From assembly GCF_011038845.1 (NCBI RefSeq), contig NZ_JAAKDW010000004.1, positions 1-64,000 on the forward strand: a stretch of 64,000 bases of DNA, in the 5' to 3' direction. A program made the translations under genes and the position numbers. Origin of the DNA: Enterococcus sp. ZJ1622 (GTDB lineage: Bacteria; Bacillota; Bacilli; Lactobacillales; Enterococcaceae). A model generated the notes under the pieces. That model searched no databases and was not told where the DNA came from. It saw only the letters and a program-made list of their open reading frames with translations. Shown piece by piece: positions 41,965 through 57,828 of the stretch; position 1 is the stretch's first letter, and every line of letters begins with the position of its first letter.

Positions 41965-42072
41965 TCAACTAGTCTTTTTATACTTATCGTTTATTTTGCA
42001 CTTTTTTTCTGCAACTTTCAAGGTTAACTTTATTATAGACAGTATTTGGGAAAAAAGCTAGCCTGTATAAAA

Positions 42073-42840
42073 GAGGTTGTGACAGTGCCGTTCAGCTTTG
42101 AGGGATAAGAAAAATTTTGGGAAAATGGCTTCTCACATTTTTGCATAAATTTGACTTATCTCCGAAAAGCTGGCACTGGAACACCGTGTATGAGGTTGTG
42201 AAAGCAGCGCTTTGACCTGAGTATTAGAGAGGAAAAATGGAAAATAGTTGCCCATATTTTGCATTTTTATGAACTAATATCGAAGGTCAGCTACTTGAAC
42301 ACCGTGAATCAGAGGTTGTGATCCTGCCGCTTAACTCTGAGGCACAAGGAACAATTTCAAAAAACAGCTTCTCATGTTTGATGAATATTGTGACTTGTGC
42401 CCGAGGAGTTGGTAGGAGAACACCGTGTATGAGGTTGTGAAAAAGCTGTCCTGCATCAAGTAATAAGAACAGCCAAACAAAAATAGCTCTTCATATTTTT
42501 CGTTTGGTTGGGCTTATTACCGCAGATGCAAGCTTTTGAACACCGTTTATCAGAGGTCGTGAAAGAGACGTTCAGCCTTGAGCGATAAGAAGCGATTTTG
42601 AAAAATAGCTCCCCATATTTTACAAAATCGTGCCTTATTGCCGATAGGCTGTCTCCTTGAACACCGTTTAGTAGAGAGGTTGTGACAACTGCGTTCTGCT
42701 TTGAGGGCCAAGTAGGTACGTTGCATCATCGAATCACTGATGTTCTTCGTGATTTAACGCAATAAGAAAATTTTTGGGAAAATGGCTTCTCACATTTTTG
42801 CATAAATTAGGCTTATCGTCGAAAAGAAACGCGCTGATTC
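42073..42840 (+). repeat. Tandem array A of the 120-bp hairpin repeat, six copies
   Basis: Copies start at 42073, 42192, 42312, 42431, 42553 and 42676, each 119-123 bases long except the last. Each begins GAGGTTGTGA (GAGGTCGTGA in one) and the first five end GAACACCGT. Inside, an outer stem, a middle stem around (A)ATAAG/CTTAT(T), and an inner AAAATAG/CATATTTT-like loop can form one long hairpin. Arm sequences differ between copies but pair within each. The sixth copy has an extra 60-base inverted segment and lacks the end motif. The array fills the space between gmk and the gene at 42905; no coding sequence is visible. Confidence 0.9.
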
Positions 42841-42849
42841 CAAAGCAAA

Positions 42850-42871
42850 AGGCTGGGGATAACCCCAGCCT
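42850..42871 (-). terminator. Terminator after the 94-residue gene
   Basis: GGCTGGGG and CCCCAGCC form a perfect stem with an ATAA loop. On the minus strand it is followed by TTTTGCTTT. It ends the yicC transcript and borders repeat array A. Confidence 0.8.
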
Positions 42872-42904
42872 GCTGATGTTCATATTTTCGACTCGCACTC
42901 TTTT

Positions 42905-43189
42905 TTAAAAACCCATATTGGATAGTGTATTGACTACACCCATGATCTCGTCTTTTCTCGATTGTGCTTTTTCAGTAGGATCTTCTACTTCTTCTGTATC
43001 TATTCGAACGATAAACTTTCGATTCATCGTGACATATGTGCCATCATTGATCAAAATAAATAATTCGTTCTCTGTGAAACCTGCACAGGCATCTTGCCAG
43101 ACGTCAAATCCTTCTTTTTCGGAAGGTACTGTTCGTTTGACTACTGTTTTCCCGCTCAATTCATGAAATGTCACATCATAATACTTCAT
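42905..43189 (-). CDS. Hypothetical protein, 94 residues
   Basis: I do not recognise the family. The protein is acidic and without membrane segments. It starts MKYYDVTFHELSGK and is predicted to be mainly beta in its first 70 residues, with a helical end. GAGGCG precedes the ATG. It follows yicC by 14 bases on the same strand and shares its terminator, so the two are probably co-transcribed. Confidence 0.75.
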   Translation of the reverse strand: MKYYDVTFHELSGKTVVKRTVPSEKEGFDVWQDACAGFTENELFILINDGTYVTMNRKFIVRIDTEEVEDPTEKAQSRKDEIMGVVNTLSNMGF

Positions 43190-43203
43190 ATTTCTCGCCT
43201 CTT

Positions 43204-44094
43204 TTATTCGATATTTTGGACTTGTTCCCGGATTTTTTCCAAGATCGTTTTTGATTGTACTACTTGCGTTTTGATTTCGATTGCATTGGATTTAGACCCG
43301 ATCGTATTGATCTCTCGATTCATCTCTTGGATAAGAAAATCAAGTTCTCTTCCCACAGGATATTCTGCCGCGATCAGCTCATCCAGCTTCTGGATATGGA
43401 TCGCTAGCCGATCCAACTCTTCATGGATATCGCCTCGTTCCAGCAAAATAGCCAATTCTGTCAAAAGACGCTGTTCGTCTACTTTCGCACCCAGAAATTC
43501 TTCTAATTTCTTCTGATATTTCAATTGAAATTCCTGTTCATAAAGTTCGATGAAACTATTTAGCTTTGTCAAAACGCTTTTGAATTCCTCGGCGTTTTGC
43601 CGGATGACTGAAGCGAGTGCATCGCCTTCTTTTTTCCTGCTTGCTTCGATGGAATCAAGCGCTGCTTTCAGTGTTTCCATCGTTAATTCTATTAACTGTT
43701 CGTTGTTTTCATCTGCTTTTTCTTCGATGAATACAAAATCTTCTTTTACTGCCAGCCGTTCGATGAGGCGCCCGATCGATAGCTGATCTTGGCAACCGTA
43801 CCGCTCTTTAAGACCTTCGGATAACTGGTCCGTCAATGAATCAATCAAAGCCCAGTCGATAACGACTTTTTTCTTATTGTCTCCGATAAGCGAAAAATTG
43901 ACGAACACTTCAATTCTGCCTCGGCTCAGTTGCTGTTTGATTAACTGTCTCAGATCATTTTCAATGCCATTCAATACTTTCGGACTTCGTATCTGGATGT
44001 CTAAAAACCGTTGATTGACGCTTTTTATCTCAATATCAAGCTGATATTCTTCTGTTTCGCGGATGGCTTTGCCAAAACCAGTCATGCTTTTCAT
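43204..44094 (-). CDS. yicC: YicC/YloC-family endoribonuclease
   Basis: 296 residues with the family opening MKSMTGFGKA and the C-terminal block RELDFLIQEMNREINTIGSKS. YicC-family proteins cleave single-stranded RNA, and in E. coli YicC affects small-RNA decay. AAAGGA precedes the ATG. In many Firmicutes yicC stands next to gmk and rpoZ. Here the same order is kept, but the hypothetical gene and repeat array A lie between. Confidence 0.92.
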   Translation of the reverse strand: MKSMTGFGKAIRETEEYQLDIEIKSVNQRFLDIQIRSPKVLNGIENDLRQLIKQQLSRGRIEVFVNFSLIGDNKKKVVIDWALIDSLTDQLSEGLKERYGCQDQLSIGRLIERLAVKEDFVFIEEKADENNEQLIELTMETLKAALDSIEASRKKEGDALASVIRQNAEEFKSVLTKLNSFIELYEQEFQLKYQKKLEEFLGAKVDEQRLLTELAILLERGDIHEELDRLAIHIQKLDELIAAEYPVGRELDFLIQEMNREINTIGSKSNAIEIKTQVVQSKTILEKIREQVQNIE

Positions 44095-44112
44095 TCGACA
44101 GGGTCCTTTCTA

Positions 44113-44331
44113 TCACATATTTTCGATTGCTTTTTGGAGCTGCTCAAATTCTTCGTTCGTCAAGGTCAGTCCTTTCCCCATTTTTTCATGGTCTGGTGCC
44201 CAGTCACGAAGATCGAACTTCGGCGGACGTCCATTCCAGCTGACAAGGTTCAGTTCCTTGCGCCAGCCCTTGTTGTTTTCGGACAAAACAGCGATTTCTT
44301 CTACGATCTCATATGAAAATTCTTGTGCCAT
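44113..44331 (-). CDS. PC4-like (YdbC-type) single-stranded nucleic-acid-binding protein
   Basis: 72 residues. [40 protein letters not shown] matches the compact PC4/YdbC domain, seen in Lactococcus YdbC, which binds ssDNA. The physiological role is not settled. GGGGGAA precedes the ATG. It overlaps the 3' end of the patatin gene by 31 bases. Confidence 0.8.
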
Positions 44332-45998
44332 ACACGTTCCCCCTTAAGATAATATAAATATACGATCAGCAATGTGTCAAATGGCTGGGCGCGCAGTTGA
44401 GCCTGCAATGTTGCCCGGTCTTTTTTCCAGAAAGCATCAGCTAATAAAGATACTTTTTTCTGGACATTCTCTACTTGATGCTGGTACTTCAAGTATCTCC
44501 GCCACTCCTCCGCACTCAGCTGGCCAATCGCTGGCAAGACAGATTCGGGAATATCGAAGCTTTCTGTCTGACAGATCGACTCGACCATCTCATCGACTTT
44601 ATACACTTTGTTCGGTAACAGGTACATTTTTTTTGCTAAAAGTTCCAGCATCGCCAATCCGCATGTTTCGATTTCGACCCTGTCTATATATAAGTTACGC
44701 ATTTTTTTCCAAAATTTTACGTCATCTAGAAAAGATAATTCAATTTCTTCTGTTTTTAAATCCTCCAAAAATTTCCGCCAGTAGGTTTCAGCCTTCTGGA
44801 CATCGTCGAAAGTATACCAGTTTCCCTGATAACAATGCAGTCTTTTTTTGGCTTCCAGATAACCCAATTCCATGTTCAACTGATTCCGCTGGCTGTCGAA
44901 TACCAGAAAGCTTCCTAAAGTCCACAATGTTCGACAATCCCACTGGACAAACTGGTCTGGTCTTTGATATTTCTTTGGAAAGCCCAGGCCTTGGACATTG
45001 ACGACAAATGCCTCTGTTGCCCCTTGCTGAATAGCTATGTCGATGGGAAGATCGTTTCGATAGCCGCCATCGATATATTTCGACTGGCTGATCTGGCGAT
45101 AAGCCATCGCAGGATAAAACGAAGCAGAGGCAAGAAGCCAGTCAGCCATTTCTTCTGGCGATTTTTCCTGGATACAGGTAACGATTTCTGAAAGATCCGG
45201 CAGACGAGTAGATACTGTGAATAATCGTGGCGTCGTTATCTGCTTGATTTTCTCTGTATCCAGATATTCGTCCAGCAGTTTTTCTAAAGGATCCGTCGGT
45301 ACACCTCGTTTGATGATCGCGGTCTTTGCCATCTGGCGGGTTTCTTGGAGGAAACGTTCACGAGGATCATCCGATAGGACACGACCTGGGAGTGAAAGAA
45401 CCTGGCTCGTTGAAAGGCGTGACCACAAATCAGCAGCTTTTTCAAAATCTCCTTGTAAAACCAACGCCCCATTCAATGCGCCGACAGACGTTCCAGTGAT
45501 GACTTCAAAGAAGATCCCCTGTTCCCTTAATGCTTTCCATACACCGATCTGATAAGCGCCATGAGCTCCTCCTCCACCTAATACAAGTGCTGTATGATAG
45601 GTCAAAGTCTTCGTCTGCTTTGCTATTCCTTCATACCCGTTTTTCTTAAAAATCAGCTGCCATTCCTCTGAAAGGCTGTCAGAAAATGAAAAAGCGCAGT
45701 TTTTTTTGAGGAAAAAACGTGCACAGCCTTCCAACAATTGAAAGAACGCTGACCAACTTGGAAAATCCCCGATCACAAGCAGATTCGTGAAGCAAGCGCA
45801 ATCCTCATCCTTTTCCAGAGTGAAATATATCGTTATTTTTTTAGCAGCTGCTTTCCATGTCTGCTGCTTTTTTGCTGCTTTCCAAAAAGCATCCCGACTT
45901 TCCTGATGGCTTTTAAAAAACGGTAATAGCTGTCTGGCACGCTGGACTGCTGGATACATCGCATATTTCTCCGACGGATAGACTTGCAGGATTTCCAT
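44301..45998 (-). CDS. Patatin-like phospholipase family protein
   Basis: Ser-Asp dyad hydrolase of the patatin family. The oxyanion loop [12 protein letters not shown], nucleophile motif GTSVG and the DGG motif with the catalytic Asp are all present, so the enzyme should be active. At 565 residues it is longer than minimal patatins: about 145 residues precede the core and about 200 follow. No signal peptide or clear membrane segment. Lipid acyl hydrolysis is expected, but the substrate is unknown. AAAGGAG precedes the ATG. The end overlaps the PC4-like gene. Confidence 0.88.
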
Positions 45999-46230
45999 AT
46001 TCTTCTCCTTTTTTCTTTAAGTATACCAGTCCGATCGAAAAAGGTCATGATGTACCTATCTTCCCTTATACATCTGATTTTCTATGGAAAACAAAAATTA
46101 AAATGAAAATTTTTAGTATTTTCAATGAAAACGTGACTCTGTAATGGAATTTTAAAATAAAAGAAACAAGCTTTTTTCTACTAAATGTTGTAAAATGAGA
46201 GTGATTAAGGAAGACATAAGGAGGAGCATG

Positions 46231-47010
46231 ATGACTGAGTCAGTTTATGTACATATTGATACCACAAGTAATGCAGTTTTAACTAAAGGGCTGACTGCCA
46301 ATGATTTTGCAGCCAGTATCGTGCATTTTCCTCAAAATCTGCTTTTGTTGGACCCAGCAGCTTCTGCCGGTGAATATGAAACACATACAGGGCTGAAGAT
46401 CATCCGTGGCACGGAGAATATCCAGCGATTCTTTGCTTCTTCACGAAACAAGAACGGGTCGACCGATTTGAAATGGATCGACTTTTCCGATCTGACCATG
46501 CTGAAAGAACTGACTCCCTTAGAAATTTCAGAACTGTTATATTTCGGACATATGAAAACACATCTTCATTCACCGTTTTTTTACAAACTGCAAAACAATT
46601 TTGTCTACTTTGATTTGAGCGATCAGTTGAGCCGAATCTATTACCGTTATTTAGATGAGTTTTACCGCATATTCGCCAATAAACTGAGCTGGATCCTTTC
46701 AGAAAAGATCAACGAGAAAAAGTCTTTTTTCAGAAGAGAGATCCCCGTCGAAAAAATCAGTGTCGAATTATTAAAGAACATGCGCAATCTCATGCAAGAA
46801 GGCATCATCTTCTCATTCGATCAAGGCGGCTTGATCAACGGAGAATACCACATACCGATCTACGTGATTGAAGATTATATCTGGAAGCTTAAAGGAACTC
46901 GGTACCGTGAAGAAGAATCCATCGGTACGTTGATCTACCATTCTGGCAATCATCGCTGGGAATTGATCGGTGAAGCAGCTGACTTCAATTACAGTTCATT
47001 GAACATTTGA
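46231..47010 (+). CDS. Hypothetical protein, about 259 residues
   Basis: Not recognised. A soluble protein without signal or membrane segments, rich in aromatic residues (LHSPFFYKLQNNFVYFDLSD). It reads like an alpha/beta cytosolic protein. AGGAGG lies six bases before the ATG at 46231; an ATG three bases earlier is also possible. A TAAAAT -10-like box lies about 40 bases upstream. It stands alone, and repeat array B begins 12 bases after the stop codon on the same strand. Confidence 0.75.
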   Translation: MTESVYVHIDTTSNAVLTKGLTANDFAASIVHFPQNLLLLDPAASAGEYETHTGLKIIRGTENIQRFFASSRNKNGSTDLKWIDFSDLTMLKELTPLEISELLYFGHMKTHLHSPFFYKLQNNFVYFDLSDQLSRIYYRYLDEFYRIFANKLSWILSEKINEKKSFFRREIPVEKISVELLKNMRNLMQEGIIFSFDQGGLINGEYHIPIYVIEDYIWKLKGTRYREEESIGTLIYHSGNHRWELIGEAADFNYSSLNI

Positions 47011-47022
47011 ATAAATGAAGTA

Positions 47023-47733
47023 GAGGTTGTGACAGAAGTGGGCAGCTTCAAGAAATAAGCCGAAATTTACGAAAATTGCTTCTCAAATTTTCGTGGAATT
47101 TCGGCTTATTTTTCGGAGAAGTTACTTCTGGAACACCGTGTGAGGTTGTAAAAAAGCTGTCCTGCATCAAGCAGTAAGAACAATCAGATAAAAATAGCTT
47201 TCCATATTTTTCATCTGATTGGGCTTAGTGCCGTAGATGCAAGCTTTTGAACACCGTGAATCAGAGGTTGTGACAACTGCGTTCTGCTTTAAGGAATAAG
47301 GACACTGGACAGAAAATAGCTCCTCATATTTTCTTGTGCAGTGAACTTATTGCCGAGAAGCAGCAGGTGGAACACCGTTTATAGAGGTCGTGGAAAAGCT
47401 GTCCTGCATCAAGCAGTAAGAACAATCAGATAAAAATAGCGTTCCATATTTTTCATCTGATTGGGCTTAGTGCCGTAGATGCAAGCTTTTGAACACCGTG
47501 AATCAGAGGTCGTGACAACTGCGTTCTGCTTTAAGGAATAAGGACACTGGACAGAAAATAGCTTCCCATATTTTCTTGTGCAGTGAACTTATTGCCGAGA
47601 AGCAGCAGGTGGAACACCGTTTATAGAGGTCGTGAAAAAGCTGCTCTGCATCAAGTAATAAGAACAGCCAAACAAAAATAGCTCTTCATATTTTTCATCT
47701 GTTCATACTTAGTGCCGTAGATGCAAGCTTTTC
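47023..47733 (+). repeat. Tandem array B of the 120-bp hairpin repeat, six copies
   Basis: Copies start at 47023, 47142, 47264, 47384, 47506 and 47626. The pairs 47142-47383 and 47384-47625 are nearly identical two-copy blocks, pointing to a recent duplication of about 242 bases. The last copy is cut short before the GAACACCGT end. The array starts 12 bases after the 259-residue gene. No coding sequence is seen to 47854. Confidence 0.9.
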
Positions 47734-47854
47734 GAATAGATAGCGTTCCGCAAACCTCAAAAAAGAAGGCGCTTACTCATAAACTAGTGTATACTGTGTT
47801 TGTCATCAAAAAGCCCAGGATTTCAAAAATACAGCTTACAGGAAAGGATTTCTT

Positions 47855-48223
47855 ATGCCAATAGAGAAAGTTACAGATACTCAACGCACTACGGACAAGC
47901 AACAAAAAAAAGTATTCATTTTTGACATTACTTTCAGCTTTATCGCTACAGAAGGACTCCTGCAAACTCAATATCTAGAAAGAAAACTATCCAAGTTTTT
48001 TGAACAAGAACAGAAAAACATCACGGTTGAAGTGTATAATTCAAATCAGGTAGATAAAAAAGCAGCAGATGCTGATATCATCCTTTTAACTCCTTCCTTC
48101 GCATACGCAAAAGAAGAAATCGAGAAAAAGTTCCCGATGATTCCTGTTATCTTGATCACGAAGAAAGAATACGGGACTACAGACAGTCGTTCGTTGTCTC
48201 ATAAAATCGAGAAACGTCTATAA
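47855..48223 (+). CDS. PTS IIB-like protein lacking the phosphorylated cysteine
   Basis: 122 residues. From residue 19 the pattern KKVFIFDITFSF...TVEVYNSNQV...ADADIILLTPSFAYAKEEIEKKFPMIPVILITKKEYG follows the lactose/cellobiose IIB fold. In IIB the first strand ends in the phosphorylated Cys; here an Asp or nearby residue replaces it, and no cysteine occurs in the protein. It therefore cannot pass phosphate in the usual way. No IIA or IIC gene is nearby. AAAGGA is about seven bases before the ATG. A decayed or regulatory IIB relative is my best guess. Confidence 0.6.
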   Translation: MPIEKVTDTQRTTDKQQKKVFIFDITFSFIATEGLLQTQYLERKLSKFFEQEQKNITVEVYNSNQVDKKAADADIILLTPSFAYAKEEIEKKFPMIPVILITKKEYGTTDSRSLSHKIEKRL

Positions 48224-48257
48224 GTGAGTAGCGAAACTCCAATTAACGAAACGATTG

Positions 48258-48307
48258 TACCGGTCTCCGAAAATCAGACTTTTTGGTCTATCTTTTGGGG
48301 GCCGGTA
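48258..48307. repeat. Nested palindrome
   Basis: TACCGG...CCGAAAA and TTTTGGG...CCGGTA form an interrupted outer stem, with AGAC/GTCT inside. Fifty bases, lying between two small genes, and not part of the 120-bp family. It could be a bidirectional terminator or the relic of a mobile element end. Confidence 0.5.
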
Positions 48308-48329
48308 TCTATTTGATATATTTTCAAAA

Positions 48330-48622
48330 TCACAACTGATGGATATGATCTTTGCTTTCATTCCACAGTTCGTTTGGAGCATAGCGGTCATTTCCATTAA
48401 GTATGACCGTTCCATCTTCTGTTATATCTATAGATGCCCCTAAACCTGTCACATGAGGTGTTAACAGTACATTTTTTTCTTACCTTTTTTCATTGAATAT
48501 GCTTCAGCATGTTCTTTGTTTAGGTGAGACTTCAAGTACCTTGTTTCCCCGTTATCGAATTCAATTTTTAAGATAGTACTCATCATTTCTACGTTTACTG
48601 CTTTAGGCATTTGATTGTTCAT
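48330..48622 (-). pseudogene. Hypothetical small protein gene, frameshifted in an A-run
   Basis: A reading frame starts MNNQMPKAVNVEMM with GGGAGG upstream and stops at 48461 after 53 residues. A second frame continues at once from the run of seven A (plus-strand T 48472-48478) with LLTPHVTGLGASIDITEDGTV and runs to 48330. One extra A, or a -1 slip on the run, would join both into a 97-residue protein. The family is unknown. It may be a true pseudogene, a sequencing error in the homopolymer, or slippage. Confidence 0.65.
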
Positions 48623-48823
48623 GCGCTTTTCCTCCCATATATTTATAATTATTTTCATCCTGATCAAAGTTGGCATTGATTCTGTCCCCATGCTTATTTG
48701 AATTTTTTTTAGCTATCCTCCACTTTCCGACTCAATAGAAACCGCTTTCTAAAATTCATCTTAACATACTAGGATCCAATGCTCCACATCATCTTTCGAA
48801 ACGCATTGGAGTAGATGAAAAAA

Positions 48824-49063
48824 GAGGTCGTGACAACTGCGTTCTGCTTTAAGGAATAAGGACACTGGACAGAAAATAGCTTCCCATATTTTCTTGTGCA
48901 GTGAACTTATTGCCGAGAAGCAGCAGGTGGAACACCGTTTATAGAGGTCGTGGAAAAGCTGCCCGGCATCAAGTAATAAGAACAGCCAAACAAAAATAAT
49001 TCTTCATATTTTTCATCTGTTCATTCTTAGTGCCGTAGATGCAACCTTTTGAACACCATTTAT
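48824..49063 (+). repeat. Array C of the 120-bp hairpin repeat, two copies
   Basis: Copies at 48824-48943 and 48944-49063. The first is essentially the same sequence as the copy at 47506. The second resembles 47626 but keeps its end motif (GAACACCAT). The pair thus looks like a transposed or duplicated end of array B. Confidence 0.88.
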
Positions 49064-49069
49064 TCAAAA

Positions 49070-49106
49070 AAGGAGGGAGCTTTGACAAGTCTTTTGTCAC
49101 AGCTCC
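49070..49106 (-). terminator. Terminator of thiT
   Basis: GGGAGCTGTGACAA pairs with TTGTCAAAGCTCCC, with CTCC and a run of six T after it on the minus strand. It directly borders repeat array C. Confidence 0.85.
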
Positions 49107-49179
49107 CACAACTAATTATTTAAGTTCATATGTTCTATGGGCTTTTAATCATACTCAGTGAAAAGCCGCAACATCCGTT

Positions 49180-49746
49180 TTAATTTTTCCTTTTCTCCGG
49201 AACAAATAGTGCCGGCATCGTTTTTTGGATGATCAGTAGCACGATGATCGTCACCGCTCCCGTTGCGATACCGCTCGCTCCGTTCATTACAAGCGAGAAT
49301 AGCCAAGGATTCATTCCCCACAAAGCATAGCTTCCCCAGAAAACGACTCCGGCGACAAAATGCCAAAAATACCTTGCGCCGGCTCCAGCTAATGCACCTG
49401 CAATGATGGCTTGTCTCATTTGTTTCGGTTCATCTTTTGCAAAACTTGATTGGACCTTTCCTGCAAACAGCCCGGCAAACCCAGCAAATGTAAAAGCGAT
49501 CGGATATTCGATCAATACTTGTATCACACTCAAATAATAAACCTGCCCCGTTGGAAAGTGAAGGATCCCCCATATAAAGCCAGACATCACGCCTGCTTTC
49601 CACCCTCTCCTCAAAGCAAACAGTGTCAGTGGAATCTGACCTAATGAAATAGAAAAGCTACTTCCGATCTGAAGCGGGATAAACGACAAGACCATTGCTA
49701 ATGCCGCAACGATCGTTCCTTCGACCCATACTCTGTTTTTTTCCAT
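49180..49746 (-). CDS. thiT: Thiamine-specific ECF transporter S component
   Basis: Membrane substrate-binding subunit that works with a shared EcfA-EcfA'-EcfT module encoded elsewhere. 188 residues with six hydrophobic segments and the ThiT-like segment YFWHFVAGVVFWG, which holds thiamine-contacting aromatic and His residues. The ATG at 49746 is seven bases after GGGGGAAG; the frame is open for 44 codons further, but that stretch is the leader. A TPP riboswitch and a hairpin covering the ribosome site control it. Confidence 0.92.
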   Translation of the reverse strand: MEKNRVWVEGTIVAALAMVLSFIPLQIGSSFSISLGQIPLTLFALRRGWKAGVMSGFIWGILHFPTGQVYYLSVIQVLIEYPIAFTFAGFAGLFAGKVQSSFAKDEPKQMRQAIIAGALAGAGARYFWHFVAGVVFWGSYALWGMNPWLFSLVMNGASGIATGAVTIIVLLIIQKTMPALFVPEKRKN

Positions 49747-49753
49747 AAAAAAA

Positions 49754-49787
49754 CTTCCCCCTTGATGTCTAATCACAAAGGAGGAAG
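49754..49787 (-). promoter_or_regulatory. Hairpin sequestering the thiT ribosome-binding site
   Basis: On the minus strand CTTCCTCCTTTG can pair with CAAGGGGGAAG, which contains the thiT Shine-Dalgarno sequence, giving about ten pairs with one G-U. A second stem-loop lies just upstream (49816-49848, GAGACAA/TTGTCTC). No T-run follows either, so control of translation rather than termination is more likely. Confidence 0.7.
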
Positions 49788-49879
49788 CAGCATAGCTGAA
49801 TTCCGCATACACGGTGAGACAAAAGCAGCGACTCCTGCTCATTGTCTCAAAACAGCCGACTGGAAACAAACTGTCCATT

Positions 49880-49963
49880 CACAATTCCTACGCTCGCATA
49901 ACCGAAACAGGTACGAAGGGTTTAGAATCATCTTCAATCTCAGCCCGATTGGACTCCCCTTTG
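49880..49963 (-). promoter_or_regulatory. TPP riboswitch
   Basis: On the minus strand the sequence shows the THI element in order: GGGGAGTCC, GGGCTGAGATTGAAG, ACCCTTCGTACCTG, then GGTTATGCGAGCGTAGGAA. The CTGAGA pyrimidine-sensing loop and the GCGTAGG-like pyrophosphate helix are intact. It lies about 130 bases before thiT, which fits thiamine uptake. Confidence 0.93.
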
Positions 49964-49996
49964 TGATCATATTTATTTGTTTTATTTGTTCTTACT

Positions 49997-50965
49997 TTAC
50001 TTTTTTGTTTCAAACAAAGGACTTACTGGTTTGTTTTCGTGGATACGCTTGATGGCATCTCCCATCAACCCACCAACACTTACTTCATCGATCTTATCGA
50101 TTTTGCGGTCGTCAGGAAGATAGATAGAATCTGTGACAACCAGACGTTCGATCGCTGAATCTTCAATTCTTTGTAATGCTGGACCAGATAACACTGGATG
50201 TGTACATGACGCGTAGACACTTGTTGCTCCTGCTTCTTTCAGTGCATTGGCAGCCAAAGTGATCGTTCCAGCTGTATCGATCATATCGTCGATCAACACA
50301 CAAGTTTTGCCTTCGACTTGTCCGATGATATTCATTACCTCAGCCACGTTGGCTTTTGGACGTCGTTTATCGATGATGGCAATCGGTGATTTCAAGAATT
50401 CTGCCAATTTACGTGCGCGTGTCACACCGCCGTGGTCTGGTGAAACGACTACAACATCGTCGCCTTTGATCCCTTTTTCTAAGAAATAATTCGCGATCAG
50501 CGGCGCACCCATCAAGTGGTCAACTGGGATATCGAAAAAGCCTTGGATCTGTACAGCATGCAGATCAAGTGTCAGCATTCTCGTTGCTCCTGCTTTTTGG
50601 ATCATGTTTGCAACTAATTTTGCAGTGATTGGTTCCCGTGCGCGTGCTTTACGGTCTTGGCGCGCATAGCCGTAATAAGGCATAACTACATTGATCGTTT
50701 TTGCGCTGGCACGTTTCAAAGCATCGATCATGATCAGCAATTCCATCAAGTTATCATTGACTGGGCTGCTAGTTGACTGGATGACATATACATGTGATCC
50801 GCGAATACTTTCTTCGATATTCACTTGGATTTCTCCGTCACTAAACTGAGTAACAGATGATTTGCCTAATTCAACACCGACTGCTGCTGCGATTTTTTCT
50901 GCTAATGGGCGATTTGAATTTAACGCAAAAATTTTTAATCTTGGGTCAAAGTAATGTTTTGACAT
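49997..50965 (-). CDS. prs: Ribose-phosphate pyrophosphokinase
   Basis: Makes PRPP from ribose 5-phosphate and ATP for nucleotide, His and Trp synthesis. 322 residues with [24 protein letters not shown] and the PRPP loop DDMIDTAGT. The ATG at 50965 follows GGAGG by five bases. It follows glmU, as in Bacillus, and is close to purR, which senses PRPP. Confidence 0.96.
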
Positions 50966-51058
50966 GGGGACCTCCGCTTTCTTTTTCACAACTCTAGGAT
51001 TCTACCTAATAAATAGTAGTCATATTTTTTAAATAAATCAAGGGTTTTTGCAAAAGTC

Positions 51059-52432
51059 TTAGTTTAGATAAGGGAGTTTTTTCGCATATCCTTCTTTATT
51101 TATCTGTCTCGCACGTGCAATTGCCAACGCATATTCGGGAATATCATCTGTGATCGTTGAACCTGCTGCGATCGAGCTGTTCTTCGCCACGTCGACTGGA
51201 CCAATGAGATTTGTGCCTGATCCGATAAAACTGTGGTCGCCGATCGTCGTGTGGTGCTTGTTCTTGCCATCGTAATTGACAAAAACCACGCCGCAGCCGA
51301 CATTGATCTCTTCGCCTAAAGTCGCATCACCGACATAAGTCAAGTGGCCGACTTTTGTCTTTTTGCCGATCTGAGCATTTTTCACTTCCACGAAATTACC
51401 GATATGGACGCCTTCTCCGATTTCTGCTTTTGGACGCAAGTGTGCGTAAGGCCCGACATCTGCATGTTTCTTGACATAGCTGTTTTCGATAACAGAACGC
51501 TCCACTACGACATGGTCTTCGATCGTACTGTCTACGATGCGTGAATGTGCACCGATAACACAGTCTGATCCGATCACAGTGTCTCCTTGTAACTGTACGC
51601 CTGCTTCGATCACGGTATCTGGACCGATCTCAACACCGGCATCGATGTAAGTCGTTGCAGAATCAATAAAGCTGACCCCATTGATCATGTGTCCTTCATT
51701 GATTCGCTGACGCATGATCTCATTGGCTTTTGCCAAAGCGATCCGGTCATTGACGCCCATTGATTCTTCGAAATCTTCTGTCTGGTAGGCAGCGACTGTC
51801 TTTCCGTCTTCTTTGAGGATCTCGATGATATCTGTCAGGTAATATTCGCCTTGCGCATTGTTCGTTCCCACTTTGCTTAGTGCCTCGAACAAGGCTTCAT
51901 TATCAAAGCAGTAAGTGCCTGTATTGATTTCCTGTACCAATGCTTCTTCTGCCGTAGCGTCTTTTTGCTCAACGATTTTTTCAACGATCCCTACATGGTC
52001 ACGCAAGATACGTCCGTAGCCTGTCGGATCTTCGGCTTGTGCGGTCAAAATGGTGGCACTGGCGTTTTTCCCTTGATGATATTCAAATAAATTGTTCAAA
52101 GTCTCTGTCGTCAGAAGTGGTGTATCTCCGCTGATGACTAATGTGGTCCCCGCTTTTCCTTCTAAGAAAGGAGCTGCTTGTAAAACAGCGTGTCCAGTTC
52201 CCAGCTGCTCTGCCTGCAAAGCATAGCTGCTGCGGTCACCTAATTGTGCCTTCACCTGCTCTGCGCCGTGTCCTATGATCGTAATGATCTCATCGGGATT
52301 CGTTTCACTTACCCGATTGATGATATGTTCCACCATTGGTTTTCCGGAAACCGGATGTAATACTTTATATAATTTGGACTTCATACGGGTTCCTTTTCCC
52401 GCTGCCAAAATAATTGCATAACGTGCGTCCAA
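51059..52432 (-). CDS. glmU: Bifunctional UDP-GlcNAc pyrophosphorylase / GlcN-1-P acetyltransferase
   Basis: Two last steps to UDP-GlcNAc, the precursor of wall and teichoic acids. 457 residues: N-terminal uridylyltransferase with [17 protein letters not shown], and a C-terminal left-handed beta helix of hexapeptide repeats with the acetyltransferase site. The start is TTG at 52432, eight bases after AGGAG. A GTG nine bases earlier overlaps the ribosome site and is unlikely. It lies between purR and prs. Confidence 0.95.
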
Positions 52433-52537
52433 CTGCGTCACTCCTAATTATAATTTGTTGTTTTCAGTGTAGCCCACTATGCCTATTTTTTCAACTGAAC
52501 TGACGATTTTTCTTGGCTATACCAATTATACCTCCAT

Positions 52538-52574
52538 AAAAAAAGGGATCGTAACATTGGTTTGTCACAATCCC
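52538..52574 (-). terminator. Terminator after purR and repeat array D
   Basis: GGGATTGTGACA pairs imperfectly with TGTTACGATCCC around a six-base loop, followed on the minus strand by seven T. Confidence 0.85.
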
Positions 52575-52649
52575 AGACCAGTCACTTTTGACCAATCAAT
52601 GGCGCTCCAAGTGCCCTCTTCAGGAATGGATCACTTGTACGCAAAACTA

Positions 52650-52957
52650 TTAAAAAGTATTTTTATCTTTGGTCATACTGCTTGATGCAGGACAGCTTTT
52701 TCACAACCTCTCCACTAAACGGTGTTCAAACAGCTTGCATCTTCGGCACTAAGCCCAAACAGACGAAAAACATGAAAAGCTATTTTTCTCTGTTTATTCT
52801 TACTGCTTGATGCAGAGCAGCTTTTTCACAACCTCTCCACTAAACGGTGTTCAAACAGCTGACCTTCGACATTAGTTCAGAAAAACGCAAAATATGGATA
52901 GCTATTTTTCATTTTTCTTCTCTAATGCTCAAGTCAAATCACTGTTTTCACAACCTC
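52650..52957 (-). repeat. Array D of the 120-bp hairpin repeat, three copies in minus orientation
   Basis: Copies read from 52957, 52835 and 52710 downward. The first base of GAGGTTGTGA follows the purR stop codon with no gap. Two copies are complete (122 and 125 bases). The third keeps only its first 60 bases or so, then sequence of unknown origin leads to the terminator at 52538-52574. Confidence 0.88.
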
Positions 52958-53776
52958 TTATTCCGAAAAATAATTTCCCGGCACAACTGTGATATTTTTC
53001 GTTTTCGTATCTACATCTTTCACATAAAGCAAAGAAGTGTAGTCATCGATTGCTCGATGGCCATTGAATTTGGATTCCGCAAAAACAGTGATCCCGACAA
53101 GCTCAGATTCAAATTCTTCGATCAAGCTCTTCATTCCGTTCACTGTTCCGCCGCCTTTCATGAAATCATCGACGACAAGTACACGGGAGCCACGTTTCAA
53201 ACTTCTTTTTGACAGTTCCATTTTTTCGATTCTTTCTGACGAACCGGAGACATAATTGACACTGACAGTTGATCCTTCTGTTATTTTAGAATCTCGGCGT
53301 ACGATAACGAATGGCGCGTTCAAATAATAAGAGACAGCTTGTGCAATCGGCACACCTTTAGTTGCCACAGTCATCACTGCATCGATTTTTTCGCCCAGAT
53401 ACTTAGAAGCGATGATGCGTCCTACTTGTCGAAGCAGTTCCGGTTCTCCAAGCAGATCAGATAAGTAAACGTATCCTCCTGGCAATAGACGATCCTGTTC
53501 AGACAAACGTTCAGCTAGCGACTCGATATACTTCTTTGCTTCTTCGTAGGAGATTTCCGGGATGAACAACACTCCTCCGGCAGCTCCTGGTATGGTCTCA
53601 AGTGTCCCATACCCTCTTTCTCTAAATGTTTTTTTGATGATCCCCAAATCTTCACTGATAGAAGATTTAGCAGATTCATAACGTTCGGCAAAGCTTGTTA
53701 ATGAAATCAATTCATGCGGATGATCTAATAAATACTGAGTCATGTCAACAAGACGCTCACTGCGACGTACTTTCAC
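52958..53776 (-). CDS. purR: Purine operon regulator PurR
   Basis: PRPP-sensing DNA-binding protein of the Bacillus type: an N-terminal winged helix (about 1-75) and a phosphoribosyltransferase-like domain with VLVVDDFMKGGGTV as the PRPP loop. 272 residues. It represses in Bacillus and activates in Lactococcus. GTG start, nine bases after AAAGGAG. A PurBox lies in its own upstream region, so autoregulation is likely. Confidence 0.94.
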   Translation of the reverse strand: MKVRRSERLVDMTQYLLDHPHELISLTSFAERYESAKSSISEDLGIIKKTFRERGYGTLETIPGAAGGVLFIPEISYEEAKKYIESLAERLSEQDRLLPGGYVYLSDLLGEPELLRQVGRIIASKYLGEKIDAVMTVATKGVPIAQAVSYYLNAPFVIVRRDSKITEGSTVSVNYVSGSSERIEKMELSKRSLKRGSRVLVVDDFMKGGGTVNGMKSLIEEFESELVGITVFAESKFNGHRAIDDYTSLLYVKDVDTKTKNITVVPGNYFSE

Positions 53777-53813
53777 CTATTTCAGCTCCTTTTAAGAAAT
53801 TTTATCGTTTTAC

Positions 53814-53878
53814 ATTATATAAGTTTTTATTCAAAAATTCGAGCATTTTATGAAAAAATAAGAAAATAGTTCGGCATT
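53814..53878 (-). promoter_or_regulatory. purR promoter with PurBox
   Basis: On the minus strand AATGCCGAACTAT (53866-53878) fits the Lactococcus PurBox pattern AWWWCCGAACWWT with one mismatch. A weaker copy with TGCTCGAAT lies near 53837-53847. TATAAT at 53814-53819 follows TCGAAT by 17 bases, so the weak -35 overlaps the second box. Confidence 0.6.
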
Positions 53879-53889
53879 TATCAAAAAAA

Positions 53890-53935
53890 AGAGAAAGCCT
53901 ACAGACATTTTTCGTGTCCATCGACTTTCTTTTTT
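53890..53935 (-). terminator. Terminator of the zinc transport operon
   Basis: AAAGTC...GGACA pairs with TGTCT...GGCTTT around CGAAAAA, then TCTCTTTTTTTT on the minus strand, close after the permease stop codon. Confidence 0.75.
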
Positions 53936-53942
53936 GCTTTTT

Positions 53943-54767
53943 TTAGTTATTTTTTCTTTTTACTGAGACAAAAATCCGTTTGATCAGATTCACGATCAGG
54001 AACAACGCGATAAATACTAAAGTAATCGTCGCACCTGGCGGAGTGTCCAGATAAAACGAACTCGTCAAGCCGGAAAGCATCCCTAAAAAACCGACAAAGA
54101 TGCTGACAGCAATCACTACGTTGAAGCTTTTGCCTAAACGCATGCCGATCGCAGCAGGCAAGACCATGATCGCTGAAATCAGCAATGCTCCGGCAATCGG
54201 AATCATCACGGCGATCGCTACTCCTGTCACCACATTGAACAGCATCGACATCCAGTGTACTGGAAGACCATCGACATGTGCGGTATCTTCATCAAAGGTC
54301 ATGACATACATCGGGCGTTTGAATAAAAAGAAGGAAATGCCGATGATTACGAACAAGATGCCTAGAAAAATCACTTGATCCCACGTGATCGTCACGATCG
54401 AACCGAATAAGTAAGACTGGATGCTTGTCGCAGAATTCCCGCCACTAAGGTTCATCAGCACTAATGCCAGAGCTAGCCCGCCCGCCATCAAAATCGCGAT
54501 CGATATCTCTGAATAAGTTCGGTAGATCGTCCGTAGGTATTCCAAAATAACTGCGGCAAGTACTACAACCAACATCGTTGTCACTGTAGGATTGATGTTT
54601 AGAAAGAAGCCAAGTGCCACACCTGCCAAAGAGACATGAGAAAGCGTATCAGCCATCAAAGACTGACGTCGGATCACTAAAAACACGCCTAGCATAGGGG
54701 CGATCCCCGCAATAAAAATCGCTGCGAGAAAGGCTCGTCTCATGAATTCATATGAAAGCAGCGCCAT
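53943..54767 (-). CDS. adcB: Zinc ABC transporter permease (AdcB/ZnuB type)
   Basis: Membrane subunit of a cluster-9 metal importer; 274 residues and about eight hydrophobic segments, with the ABC-3 family stretch [16 protein letters not shown]. It overlaps the ATPase gene by 28 bases, so the two are coupled. Zinc rather than manganese is inferred from the His-rich loop of AdcA and the Zur-type operator. Confidence 0.92.
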
Positions 54768-55420
54768 TGAGAATCCTCCTTTCTCACCAAACGGATCTGT
54801 CTATCCGCATATTGTTTGATGTCTTCGTGATCATGCGTGATCATCAGCACAGATTTCCCATGGACATGCGCACTGTGTCGGAGGAGCCGATAAAACTCAT
54901 TTCTCGATTCCTCATCCATTCCAGTCGTGGGTTCGTCTAAAACAAACAGATCCGGATCTGTTGCAAAAACACGAGCCAAACTGATCCGCTGTTTCTGACC
55001 GCCGGAAAGTTCGCCGATCCGTCGATTCCGCATATTCCACATACCGACTGCTTCCAGAGCTCGCTGGACATGTTCATGGTCTTTTTTCGACAAACGCTTG
55101 AACCATTTGCCGCGCGGGTAGCGCCCAGAACGGACCAATTCGATCACCGTACTGGGAAACCCTGCATTGAAGGAGGAAACTTGCTGCGGGATGTAGCCAA
55201 TACTCAACTTTTTGCCTTCCTGGTTTTTCTCGGCTATTTTCACCGTTCCTTTTGAAGGCTTCAATAAACCTAAAGATGCTTTTACCAGCGTCGATTTCGC
55301 TGCACCGTTCTCTCCTGTTAAAATAACGAATTCCCCAGCATCCACATGGTAAGAAACATCTTCTAAGACAGGTTCTTCATCATAATAAAAAGTCAAGTCG
55401 GATATCTCTATATAATGCAC
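54740..55420 (-). CDS. adcC: Zinc ABC transporter ATP-binding protein (AdcC/ZnuC type)
   Basis: 226 residues. Walker A is GENGAAKST, with Ala where most ABC proteins have Gly, a feature common in AdcC relatives. Signature LSGGQKQR, Walker B LFVLDEPT and a switch His (MITHDHED) are all present. It lies 22 bases after adcA. Confidence 0.93.
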
Positions 55421-55442
55421 CTTATGACCTCCGTTCTATCTA

Positions 55443-56384
55443 TTAATTGATACTTTCTTTCAGTGCGTCCAGATTCTTTTCCATCACAGAGATATAATTC
55501 TCGCCATTTTTGATCTGTTCATTCGTCAGACTTTCTAATGGATTCAATACCTCTAGCTGCACACCTGTTTCACTTGATAATGTTTCGGCAACTTTCGAAG
55601 AAGCATTTTCTTCAAAGTAAATGACTTTGATATTGTTCTCCTTCACAAAATCTTTCAGTTCAGCCAATCTGCTTGGTGTTGGTTCTTGGTCTGGTGAGAC
55701 ACCGGAGATCGCAACTTGTTTCAAGTCATACTGATTGGCCATGTACGCAAATGCTGCATGCTGTGTGACGAATGTCCGATTTTTTGCATCTTTCAATTCA
55801 CTTGAATATTTTTGATCCAGTGCTTCCAGTTTTTTGATATAGGCATCCGCATTTTTCGTAAATGTTTCTTTCTTGTCTGGATACTGTTCACCTAATTCTC
55901 TGGCGATCGTCTTCACTTCTTGGATCGCAAGGACAGGATCGAGCCAAACGTGCGGATCGTACTCGTGGTCATGATGCTCATCAGCTTCTTCGCTATGTTC
56001 TTCCTCGTGTTCTTCTTGAGATTCCAACCGTTTGATCCCTTTGGCTGCCTCGATCATCTTCGTTTTGTCAGTATCTATTGAATCTTTCAGTGAGTCAACG
56101 AAAAATTCCATGTCTGAACTATTATACACGAAAACATCAGCATCGGAAATCTCTGCTCTTTCTTTTGCACTTGGTTCAAAATCATGGGGCTCGGTACCAG
56201 CTGGGATCAAAAGTTCGACGTCCCCCTCGTCACCTACGATCTCTTTCGTAAAATCATACATTGGATAAAAAGTCGTTACGATTTTCAAGTCCTCGTTTTT
56301 CGAAGAATCTTGAGAAGTATTCCCGCAAGCTGCAAACAATAAAGTTCCCGCAGCTGCTACAGCTGCTAAAAGATATTTTTTCAT
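55443..56384 (-). CDS. adcA: Zinc-binding lipoprotein of the Adc/Znu ABC transporter
   Basis: Extracellular solute-binding protein anchored by a lipid. 313 residues; the lipobox LFAAC places the lipidated cysteine near residue 20. A Glu/His-rich loop (EEHEEEHSEEADEHHDHEYD) is typical of zinc receptors, followed by HVWLDP. The ATG at 56384 follows AAGGAG by about ten bases. It leads the adcA-adcC-adcB operon behind a strong promoter and Zur-type operator. It lacks the C-terminal ZinT domain found in streptococcal AdcA. Confidence 0.93.
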   Translation of the reverse strand: MKKYLLAAVAAAGTLLFAACGNTSQDSSKNEDLKIVTTFYPMYDFTKEIVGDEGDVELLIPAGTEPHDFEPSAKERAEISDADVFVYNSSDMEFFVDSLKDSIDTDKTKMIEAAKGIKRLESQEEHEEEHSEEADEHHDHEYDPHVWLDPVLAIQEVKTIARELGEQYPDKKETFTKNADAYIKKLEALDQKYSSELKDAKNRTFVTQHAAFAYMANQYDLKQVAISGVSPDQEPTPSRLAELKDFVKENNIKVIYFEENASSKVAETLSSETGVQLEVLNPLESLTNEQIKNGENYISVMEKNLDALKESIN

Positions 56385-56409
56385 TTCAGTCCAGTGCTCC
56401 TTTCTAAGC

Positions 56410-56471
56410 AAATCGTAATTTTACGATTTATCGACGTGAACTAATGTATCAGAATAAAAAAACGCCGTCAA
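56410..56471 (-). promoter_or_regulatory. adcA promoter and Zur-type operator
   Basis: TTGACG (56466-56471) and TACATT (56443-56448) are 17 bases apart. Just downstream of the -10, AAATCGTAA and TTACGATTT form a perfect 9-2-9 palindrome (56410-56429), nearly identical to the Bacillus Zur box. A lone half-site AAATCGTAA lies upstream at 56515-56523. Repression under zinc sufficiency is expected. Confidence 0.8.
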
Positions 56472-56592
56472 TAGAAAACCGTCAATTTCTGATTTAAACA
56501 CCTATAAATCGATTAAATCGTAAAATAGATGAGTTTGCATTCATGTTTAGGTGCATCAAACGATCTTGTTTTTTCTGTTTTGACCAAGCCTC

Positions 56593-56642
56593 AAAAAAAG
56601 AGAAGGTACTGTGACAAAAATCTTGTCACAGCACCTTTTTTC
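56593..56642. terminator. Bidirectional terminator after ispE and repeat E
   Basis: AAGGTACTGTGACAA pairs with TTGTCACAGCACCTT (one mismatch) around a five-base loop, with seven A before and six T or more after. Confidence 0.88.
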
Positions 56643-56647
56643 CGAAT

Positions 56648-56768
56648 GAACGATGTTCCAGAAGTAGCTTCTTCGAAAAATAAGTCGGAATTCCACAAAA
56701 ATTTGAGAAGCATTTTTCGTAAATCCCTTCTTATTTTCTTGAAGCTGTTCACTTCTGTCACAACCTCT
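56648..56768 (-). repeat. Single copy E of the 120-bp hairpin repeat, minus orientation
   Basis: It starts GAGGTTGTGACAGAAGTG 19 bases after the ispE stop codon and ends with GAACATCGTTCAT, a variant of the usual end. Its outer arms (CAGAAGTG...CAGCTTCA / GAAGCTACTTCTG) resemble those of the copy at 47023. Confidence 0.85.
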
Positions 56769-57636: not shown

Positions 57637-57828
57637 CCTCTCACCCATTCGAAAAGTCTAAGTCGAAAGTATTCTATCATAGGGGAAAATAAAAGTATAG
57701 CTTACTCCTAATCAATTCTACCATCACTCCGTTGTCAAACGATCGGTCAATAAATGCAAGATCAGGACTGTCCTTTCTCCTGACCTATGATTTCCACGAA
57801 AAGCAGCAGCTGTCAAAAAGCTACTTCC

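What the first reader, a model, noticed from the sequence alone, without database searches (positions are those of the whole stretch)
42073..56768. A 120-bp hairpin repeat family whose stems covary between copies
About 18 copies in five clusters share fixed elements (start GAGGTTGTGA, ATAAG/CTTAT block, central AAAATAG...CATATTTT, a GCCGA-like motif, end GAACACCGT) but have variable stems. In each copy the variable arms match each other. The copy at 42073 pairs AGTGCC...CAGCTTT with AAAGCTGGCACT. The one at 42312 pairs TCCTGCC...AACTC with GAGTTGGTAGGA. The one at 42553 pairs GAGAC...CAGCCT with AGGCTGTCTC. The one at 47264 pairs CTGC...CTGCTT with AAGCAGCAG. A three- or four-base bulge (often GTT) recurs on the 5' arm. 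Pairing is kept while sequence changes, which points to a structured RNA or a DNA-hairpin-dependent mobile repeat. I cannot recall a named family, though one may exist.
Basis: partly seen in the sequence, partly recalled or inferred. Interest (0 to 1): 0.88.

Follow-up and report, generated by a model that had tools for sequence, protein, structure and literature searches.

The report
Terminator-replacing hairpin mini-transposons in enterococci
The repeats are copies of a small, non-coding jumping element that swaps itself in for the hairpins that end transcription; the kind is known from Enterococcus faecalis, and here it is tied to a likely enzyme family and found in many related bacteria.

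Summary
The window holds 16 full 114-121-nt hairpin units in five clusters, plus three broken pieces. Stems covary: 28 of 41 pairs have double changes in 15 window copies; 629 double-change cells against 168±16 shuffled in 81 copies.

It is not a lone structured RNA. In 854 kb of the host genome, arrays of 1-6 units often end in a conserved terminator-like hairpin, avoid divergent spacers (0 of 55) and show no orientation preference between codirectional genes (18 sense, 15 antisense).

Between two relatives, five element-bearing sites correspond to a 27-45-nt hairpin in the other genome, with stem bases or T-tract kept and no duplication seen. Element ends resemble the terminal repeats of IS1272-group IS1182 transposons, whose published insertion mode is the same.

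Verdict: EFAR-type MITEs (known in E. faecalis), probably mobilised by IS1272-like transposases, in 81 of 105 Enterococcaceae genomes, in Vagococcus and on Lactiplantibacillus plasmids. New, as far as searched: the transposase link, the range, the conserved bulges.

The parts
42073..42187 (+). hairpin unit 1 of cluster 1
   Evidence: 117.7 bits; fold
42192..42305 (+). hairpin unit 2 of cluster 1
   Evidence: 94.1 bits; fold
42312..42426 (+). hairpin unit 3 of cluster 1
   Evidence: 107.1 bits; fold
42431..42546 (+). hairpin unit 4 of cluster 1
   Evidence: 118.7 bits; fold
42553..42667 (+). hairpin unit 5 of cluster 1
   Evidence: 104.6 bits; fold
42676..42825 (+). broken unit: 5' part of one unit, then an extra hairpin module (about 42706-42762 by eye; a similar module sits in an E. 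faecalis copy, L218:37120-37279), then the core of another unit (42754-42825)
47023..47139 (+). hairpin unit 1 of cluster 2, 12 nt after the stop codon of the gene ending at 47010
   Evidence: 108.3 bits; fold
47142..47257 (+). hairpin unit 2 of cluster 2
   Evidence: 117.5 bits
47264..47378 (+). hairpin unit 3 of cluster 2
   Evidence: 117.9 bits; fold
47384..47499 (+). hairpin unit 4 of cluster 2
   Evidence: 114.4 bits
47506..47620 (+). hairpin unit 5 of cluster 2
   Evidence: 117.3 bits
47626..47746 (+). hairpin unit 6 of cluster 2, 3' end degraded
   Evidence: 72.2 bits
48824..48938 (+). hairpin unit 1 of cluster 3
   Evidence: 117.3 bits
48944..49059 (+). hairpin unit 2 of cluster 3
   Evidence: 85.4 bits; fold
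49075..49107 (+). terminal terminator-like hairpin GGGAGCTTTGACAAGTCTTTTGTCACAGCTCCC; its 3' arm is read as the element's right terminal inverted repeat
52844..52957 (-). hairpin unit 1 of cluster 4, directly after the stop codon of the PurR-like gene (52958-53776)
   Evidence: 99.5 bits; fold
52719..52835 (-). hairpin unit 2 of cluster 4
   Evidence: 113.4 bits
52599..52710 (-). broken unit of cluster 4
   Evidence: 19.3 bits
56650..56767 (-). hairpin unit of cluster 5, 20 nt after the stop codon of the GHMP-kinase gene (56788-57648)
   Evidence: 102.7 bits; fold
56603..56637 (-). terminal terminator-like hairpin of cluster 5, followed by a T-tract

Best explanation
The repeats are miniature, non-coding transposable elements (MITEs) of the EFAR type. 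A complete element is one or more 115-nt hairpin units plus a terminator-like end hairpin, bounded by imperfect terminal inverted repeats of about 12-16 bp. They insert by replacing a hairpin, typically that of a transcription terminator, in either orientation, leaving outer stem bases and/or the T-tract and making no target duplication (shown as differences at five sites in two relatives; the direction, gain rather than loss, is inferred). Because they bring a terminator-like hairpin of their own, termination is probably preserved and insertion is probably nearly neutral (inferred). The enzyme is most likely a transposase of the IS1272 group of the IS1182 family, acting in trans on the shared terminal repeats (inferred from the ends and from the published mode of insertion; not shown by experiment). 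Arrays grow and shrink by whole units, probably by recombination between direct repeats (shown as unit-sized differences). The unit's fold with its fixed bulges is kept by selection on one strand (supported by covariation and by the excess of G-U over A-C); whether that is for transposition or for an effect on the transcript is open.
For: Covariation. Composite structure with a conserved end hairpin. Location: 0 of 55 clusters divergent although 95 of 433 spacers of 60 nt or more are; 18 sense and 15 antisense in codirectional spacers. Five sites whose counterpart in the other genome is a 27-45-nt hairpin, 0-2 of 200 mononucleotide shuffles as stable; three are directly followed by a T-tract. 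The spacer of the window's cluster 1 in 10 relatives with both anchors: 8 have no unit at E<=0.01, one has 1, one has 2; the window has 5 plus a broken one; at least 4 of the 8 carry an unrelated hairpin by eye. Ends: 69 of 81 diverse 5' ends (A2) and 90 of 113 own-genome 5' ends agree with the best of ten IS1272-group end sequences in at least 11 of 16 bases, against 0.18% of 40,000 sampled genomic 16-mers. Ends read from records: IS1272 GAGTCTGGGACATAAA, ISSau3 GAGGCTGGGACATAAA, an L. plantarum IS1182 GAGGCTGTGACATAAG. Published IS1272 mechanism: PMC5678879 (abstract and passages), PMC4923244 (abstract and passages). E. faecalis copies have the ~170-bp two-hairpin form.
Against: IS1272-like transposases were found in only 30 of 105 family genomes and are not enriched in genomes with the element (24 of 81 with it, 6 of 24 without; my count); the window genome shows only a fragment (C33:76675-77094). 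No autonomous element with EFAR-like ends was recognised in about 2.4 Mb scanned (that scan was permissive, its output was cut and I saw part of it). The end hairpin was recognised in only 26 of 55 clusters. The end test has weaknesses: best of ten sequences was taken; some of the ten were located by searching for the motif itself (both ends were found without the motif in ISSau3, the L. plantarum, one E. faecium and the Macrococcoides element, and in IS1272); copies are related, so rows are not independent; and the 25-of-26 figure for 3' ends is partly circular because those ends were picked by a core that contains GACA. The expected stronger T-tract on the sense side was not significant (p=0.15), although the 5' A-tract of antisense arrays was (p=0.0014). 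Other IS1182 elements in these genomes have different ends and duplicate the target palindrome. No empty site was obtained for the window's own genome against a close strain.
Confidence: 0.75

Rival explanations
1. A structured 3'-UTR RNA with a cellular function (for example stabilising mRNA ends or binding a protein), spread by duplication and kept by selection on the transcript.
For: Strong covariation; G-U cells exceed A-C cells 198 to 21 in A2 and 225 to 78 in A3, so one strand folds; sense arrays begin a median 20.5 nt after a stop codon; several bulge and loop bases are conserved while stems change.
Against: 15 of 33 arrays in codirectional spacers are antisense and lie past the neighbouring gene's end. 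Occupancy of orthologous sites is erratic. The G-U excess is partly built in where rows were picked by a strand-aware model (A2, A3); in the seed alignment made without structure it is 28 to 7 (my count).
Confidence: 0.15
2. The elements move by a single-strand (Y1 / IS200-IS605 or RAYT type) transposase that recognises the hairpin, as for REP sequences.
For: Hairpins fold on one strand; Y1 transposases are common in the family, 65 of 105 genomes.
Against: No association with the element: Y1 is present in 50 of 81 genomes with it and 15 of 24 without (my count); element-rich G005, G010 and G011 show no Y1 match at E<=1e-10. IS200-type insertion does not delete a target hairpin (recalled). The ends match IS1182-family repeats instead.
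Confidence: 0.04
3. The stem matches arise without selection, by quasi-palindrome correction (template switching) that copies one arm onto the other.
For: Such correction produces paired changes in inverted repeats (recalled).
Against: The non-complementary parts persist at fixed places in A3 (110 rows): bulge G in 108, an inner-loop A in 110, and the GA facing GA near the base in 100 and 107 rows on the 5' side and 106 and 106 on the 3' side. Arm-copying would erase these mismatches.
Confidence: 0.06

Closest known systems
EFAR elements / Efa-1 family of Enterococcus faecalis (Venditti et al. 2007, recalled, not held; Efa-1 in PMC2267715; EFAR named as a MITE of enterococci in PMC3733652)
   Different: Window copies belong to another species of the E. 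faecium group (genus of E. lactis), with other stem sequences and an A-tract before the end hairpin; tandem arrays to 6 units; the same structure reaches other families of Bacilli. I could not compare letters with the 2007 paper, and that Efa-1 and EFAR are one family is my inference.
IS1272 / ISSau3 and relatives (IS1182 family), inverted-repeat-replacing insertion (PMC5678879, PMC4923244)
   Same: End motif GAG(G/T)(C/T)TG(T/G)GACA; hairpin and terminator targets; partial deletion of the target stem; no target duplication; both orientations.
   Different: IS1272 is a 1.9-kb element with a transposase gene (PMC5678879 passage); the window's elements carry none.
Other small hairpin repeats of Firmicutes (BOX, RUP, SPRITE of Streptococcus pneumoniae; named in PMC10969869, passages)
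   Same: Short, intergenic, stem-loop forming, clustered.
   Different: No sequence comparison was made here; attributes are from that review's passages and recall.

Membership tests
EFAR (E. faecalis repeats) | Two adjacent stem-loops, usual size about 170 bp (size recalled) | tested here: met
   E. faecalis, 300 kb: 11 rows, of which 4 are overlapping opposite-strand or duplicate rows and 1 an unrelated hairpin; of the 6 element-like places left, 4 are a 116-nt hairpin plus a second hairpin, about 170 bp. In the window genome the same two parts are seen, with 1-6 first hairpins; the second was recognised in 26 of 55 clusters.
EFAR (E. faecalis repeats) | Integration at unrelated short stem-loops with loss of most of the stem-loop (recalled from the 2007 abstract) | tested here: met
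   Five sites differing between G007 and G011, 27-45 nt hairpins, outer stem or T-tract kept. These are relatives of the window species, not the window genome itself.
EFAR (E. faecalis repeats) | Letter-level match to the published EFAR sequence types | not testable with these tools
   The 2007 paper was not held under the PubMed id I tried from memory; only an indirect match through E. faecalis DNA.
EFAR (E. faecalis repeats) | Modular assembly of sequence types (recalled) | tested here: met
   An extra hairpin module is shared, by eye, by the window (about 42706-42762) and an E. faecalis copy (L218:37120-37279); truncated and extended units.
MITE of the IS1272 group (IS1182 family) | Terminal inverted repeats shared with the autonomous element | tested here: met
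   69 of 81 5' ends agree with the best of ten end sequences in at least 11 of 16 bases; 25 of 26 3' ends likewise, but those were picked by a core containing GACA. The repeats are similar, not identical.
MITE of the IS1272 group (IS1182 family) | Hairpin target, replaced, no target duplication | tested here: met
   published for IS1272 in PMC5678879 and PMC4923244 (abstracts and passages).
MITE of the IS1272 group (IS1182 family) | Transposase in the same or related genomes | tested here: inconclusive
   30 of 105 family genomes have a match at E<=1e-30, no association with the element; 87 Enterococcus plasmid records have one at E<=1e-60.
MITE of the IS1272 group (IS1182 family) | Mobilisation in trans by that transposase | not tested
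   Needs an experiment.
Rfam RNA family | Score at or above a family's gathering cut-off | tested here: not met
   Whole window: only a TPP riboswitch, outside the units; at relaxed threshold only sub-cut-off matches for window 42000-49100 and for eight distant loci.

The most novel reading that the evidence does not exclude
One hairpin-exchange system runs through the Bacilli: IS1272-group transposons carry terminator-like hairpins of their own at their ends, and dependent hairpin MITEs (EFAR in enterococci, relatives in Vagococcus, on lactobacillus plasmids and in unnamed families that I guess to be Staphylococcaceae and Bacillaceae) have replaced many of the transcription terminators of these genomes. 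The folded unit, with its fixed four-base bulge and GA-type inner loops, would itself be part of what the transposase reads, so that the enzyme recognises DNA shape at both donor and target.
Probability: 0.3. Interest if true: 0.82.

Novelty: new member of a known kind. Interest (0 to 1): 0.58.

Why it matters
If right, a repeat described in 2007 without (as far as I recall) a known enzyme gets a likely transposase and a mechanism that can be tested directly. It would also mean that in such enterococci a good share of gene ends has been remodelled by selfish hairpins: 55 arrays in 854 kb of this genome, which would scale to at most about 190 if the sampled contigs, chosen because they had matches, were typical. 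That bears on terminator annotation, on strain typing by repeat arrays, on short-read assembly of these genomes, and on how a DDE transposase can recognise target shape rather than sequence.

Tried and rejected
Rfam: no family. Y1/REP-type mobilisation: no co-occurrence. The enterococcal IS1182 elements with ends CAGACTGTAGACAAAG as the mobiliser: 75 of 81 element starts agree with that one repeat in 9 of 16 bases or fewer (a single sequence, so not a like-for-like comparison with the best of ten) and those elements duplicate the target palindrome. A search for an autonomous element with EFAR-like ends around an open frame gave 377 loose pairs; the ones I saw were mostly around ordinary genes (output cut, not pursued). 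A DNA pattern for E. faecalis copies found nothing in L218; the model did. Papers: EFAR itself is mentioned in one held passage on repeats (PMC3733652). No paper holding at least five of the terms IS1182, non-autonomous, Enterococcus, terminator, repeat family, MITE was found (0 papers). The EFAR-IS1272 link did not show in the listings; that library lacks most subscription journals.

Rows dropped: two antisense self-matches in the window; one before the 124-unit census; identical rows and units outside 108-122 nt before the A3 counts (110 rows left). In one search one cluster overlaps a called gene and one holds units on both strands and was classed by its first unit. In one search, 13 clusters were flagged as lacking an annotated unit in the other genome; the 8 with a gap of at most 60 nt were inspected: 5 hairpin replacements, 2 unit-level array changes, 1 diverged copy present in both; the other 5 were not inspected. 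Clusters without a usable flank or not colinear (3) gave no information.


Full report
WHAT IS THERE. Five clusters in the window hold 16 full hairpin units of 114-121 nt and three broken pieces. The fold is one long hairpin. A short basal helix GGU.GU/ACACC is followed by GA facing GA, a 7-bp helix, a four-base bulge on the 5' side, a 6-bp helix, an inner loop (GA or AA facing CGA), an 8-bp helix with ATAAG/CTTAT, a 2x2 purine loop, further stem of about 15 bp, and an 8-base loop. Ten of the 16 units were folded; z runs from -2.8 to -9.1. In 15 window copies 28 of 41 pairs have changes on both sides. A model built from them (R1), run over 47 of the sources then held, aligned 81 copies from many genera, 16 of them the window's: 96.7% of cells paired, 629 double-change cells against 167.6±15.7 in shuffles, and sliding the partners by one to three bases drops pairing to 53% or less. 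The alignment was fitted to the structure, which favours it. The more distant set A6 behaves the same (385 against 116.7±8.5).

HOW COMMON. The window's genome (3.02 Mb, 55 contigs) gave 150 matches, the tool's scoring ceiling. A census of 854 kb of it, on contigs chosen because they had matches, gave 125 matches at E<=0.01, 124 after removing one antisense self-match, in 55 clusters of 1-6 units. All 15 genus genomes held, the window's included, have the element, 31-150 matches each with 150 the ceiling. It is found in 81 of 105 family genomes, 58 of 295 order genomes at E<=1e-5 and, with the broader model R2, 23 of 398 class genomes. Searches used stricter filters and can miss weak matches. 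An exact scan for one stem type (42 stretches of DNA) names Enterococcus lactis, E. avium, E. raffinosus, E. devriesei, E. dispar, E. hulanensis, Vagococcus fluvialis and V. silagei. The class-level family f17, where most of the other class-level matches lie, is unnamed; from genome size I guess Staphylococcaceae. Weak matches (E about 1e-7) in five genomes of 3.2-4.8 Mb (f11, f22, f60; Bacillaceae-like by guess) share the layout with other letters, one with seven tandem units. Plasmids: 64 records, 54 of them Enterococcus and 6 Lactiplantibacillus.

THE ELEMENT IS COMPOSITE. The 3' flank of many clusters is itself conserved: TTATTCGGAAAAAGGAGCTGTGACAAGACTTTTGTCACAGCTCC, often followed by T's, a terminator-like hairpin. 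It was recognised in 26 of 55 clusters. Of eight good copies of this hairpin without an annotated unit, seven show unit remnants just upstream by eye. In E. faecalis (record NZ_CP143580.1, called a plasmid but full of core genes), 300 kb gave 11 rows: six element-like places, one unrelated hairpin and four overlapping rows. Four of the six are a 116-nt hairpin plus a second hairpin, about 170 bp. That fits Efa-1 in PMC2267715 (length 163, adjacent stem-loops; passages and one section read) and, as I recall its abstract, EFAR (Venditti et al. 2007; not held). PMC3733652 names "EFAR elements in Enterococci" among bacterial MITEs (one passage). An extra hairpin module in the window's broken unit recurs, by eye, in an E. 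faecalis copy.

WHERE IT SITS. With genes called by my own script, 22 clusters lie between convergent genes, 18 are sense and 15 antisense between codirectional genes, and 0 of 55 lie between divergent genes, although 95 of 433 spacers of at least 60 nt are divergent (chance about 1e-6 if spacers were drawn by number). One cluster overlaps a called gene. Sense arrays begin a median 20.5 nt after the stop codon. Antisense arrays have an A-tract before the first unit more often than sense ones (p=0.0014), which is what a terminator's T-tract read backwards would leave; the mirror test on the 3' side is not significant (p=0.15, 26 clusters). So arrays sit where terminators sit, in either orientation.

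SITES THAT DIFFER BETWEEN RELATIVES. G007 and G011 are 97.5% identical over a shared 4.2-kb stretch. Comparing 800 and 760 kb, 13 clusters were flagged as lacking an annotated unit in the other genome. Eight with a gap of at most 60 nt were read. Five show the same thing: the other allele is a 27-45-nt hairpin, with 0, 0, 1, 0 and 2 of 200 mononucleotide shuffles as stable; three of the five are directly followed by a T-tract. The element-bearing allele keeps outer stem bases or the T-tract and shows no duplication (by eye). Two others are whole-unit changes inside arrays and one is a diverged copy in both. At least four of those 8 carry an unrelated hairpin there. Gain rather than loss is inferred.

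WHICH ENZYME. The whole element has imperfect terminal repeats: for example 5' GAGGTTGTGACAGAAG and, as commonest reversed 3' end (6 of 26), GGAGCTGTGACAAAAG in the window genome, and GAGGTCGGGACAGAAC with GAGCGTGGGACAAAAA in E. faecalis. PMC5678879 (abstract and passages) reports that IS1272, of the IS1182 family, transposes by replacing inverted-repeat (stem-loop) targets of 21-85 bp, without target duplication; some older copies there had non-repeat targets. PMC4923244 (abstract and passages) reports hairpin targets, five of seven confirmed as terminators by RNA-seq, with partial deletion of the target and insertions in both orientations at one site. Reading ends from records gave IS1272 GAGTCTGGGACATAAA/GAGTCCGGGACATAAA, ISSau3 GAGGCTGGGACATAAA/GAGGCTGGGACATTAA, an L. 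plantarum element GAGGCTGTGACATAAG/GAGGCTGTGACATAAC, one E. faecium element GGACCTGGGACAAAAA at both ends, and the motif at one or both ends of a Macrococcoides, an E. hirae and a second E. faecium element. Against ten such 16-mers, 69 of 81 diverse element starts and 90 of 113 own-genome starts reach 11 of 16, versus 0.18% of 40,000 sampled genomic 16-mers. The 25-of-26 figure for 3' ends is partly circular, and some of the ten were found by the motif itself. In 10 of 12 end stretches folded, the autonomous elements carry a long hairpin just inside the repeat, and R2 gives weak matches in six of ten loci searched (best E 0.0006). Against this: the transposase is in 30 of 105 family genomes and not enriched with the element, and other IS1182 elements of these enterococci have different ends and duplicate their palindromic target (family confirmed for three). 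MITEs often outlive their enzyme (general knowledge), so absence is weak evidence.

WHY THE STEMS COVARY. One strand folds: G-U cells exceed A-C cells 198 to 21 in A2 and 225 to 78 in A3. The rows there were picked by a strand-aware model, but the seed alignment made without structure gives 28 to 7 by my count. Fixed mismatches and bulges argue against arm-copying as the cause. In A2 the mean entropy of unpaired and paired columns is alike (0.87 and 0.86); in A3 it is 0.71 and 0.93, so only some loop positions are strongly fixed. Whether the fold serves the transposase, the transcript or both is not settled.

CONCLUSION. EFAR-type MITEs, here in another species group than E. faecalis, that replace hairpins, typically terminators, very likely through an IS1272-group transposase. 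Shown: structure, covariation, distribution, location, five hairpin-exchange differences and end similarity. Inferred: direction, the enzyme, preserved termination and the role of the fold.

Noticed in passing
window 49868-49970 (-): TPP riboswitch above its gathering score, at the start of a thiamine-transporter (Thia_YuaJ) gene.
   Followed up: no
L331, L332, L333 (G000, G004, G011); also L246 (G007): IS1182-family elements in enterococci with ends CAGACTGTAGACAAAG (or close) whose flanks are direct repeats, 23-26 bp, of a mostly palindromic, terminator-like target: a second way of using hairpin targets.
   Followed up: partly
   Followed up: partly
phages collection, records named Listeria phage LM 4-11-1 / LM 4-14-1 (e.g. 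OR846783.1): 62 records with Listeria names hold copies; the 15 listed are 86-94% identical to the window's unit and carry no annotation. They may be bacterial contigs rather than phage genomes.
   Followed up: no
plasmids CP069369.1 (Klebsiella) and NZ_CP151545.1 (Pseudomonas): Unit copies at 86% and 78% identity in Gram-negative plasmid records: mislabelled contigs or rare transfer.
   Followed up: no
NZ_CP143580.1: A 747-kb record called an E. faecalis plasmid contains core genes (polA, uvrA, metK, clpP) and looks chromosomal.
   Followed up: no
L131:14005-14061, L154:6654-6687, L138:18060-18117: Very short forms (34-58 nt) match both ends of the model and lack the middle, so internal deletion of the hairpin occurs.
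   Followed up: no
G000:C33:76675-77094: Fragment of an IS1272-like transposase (45% identity over query residues 408-545) about 1.3 kb from a hairpin unit in the window's own genome.
   Followed up: no
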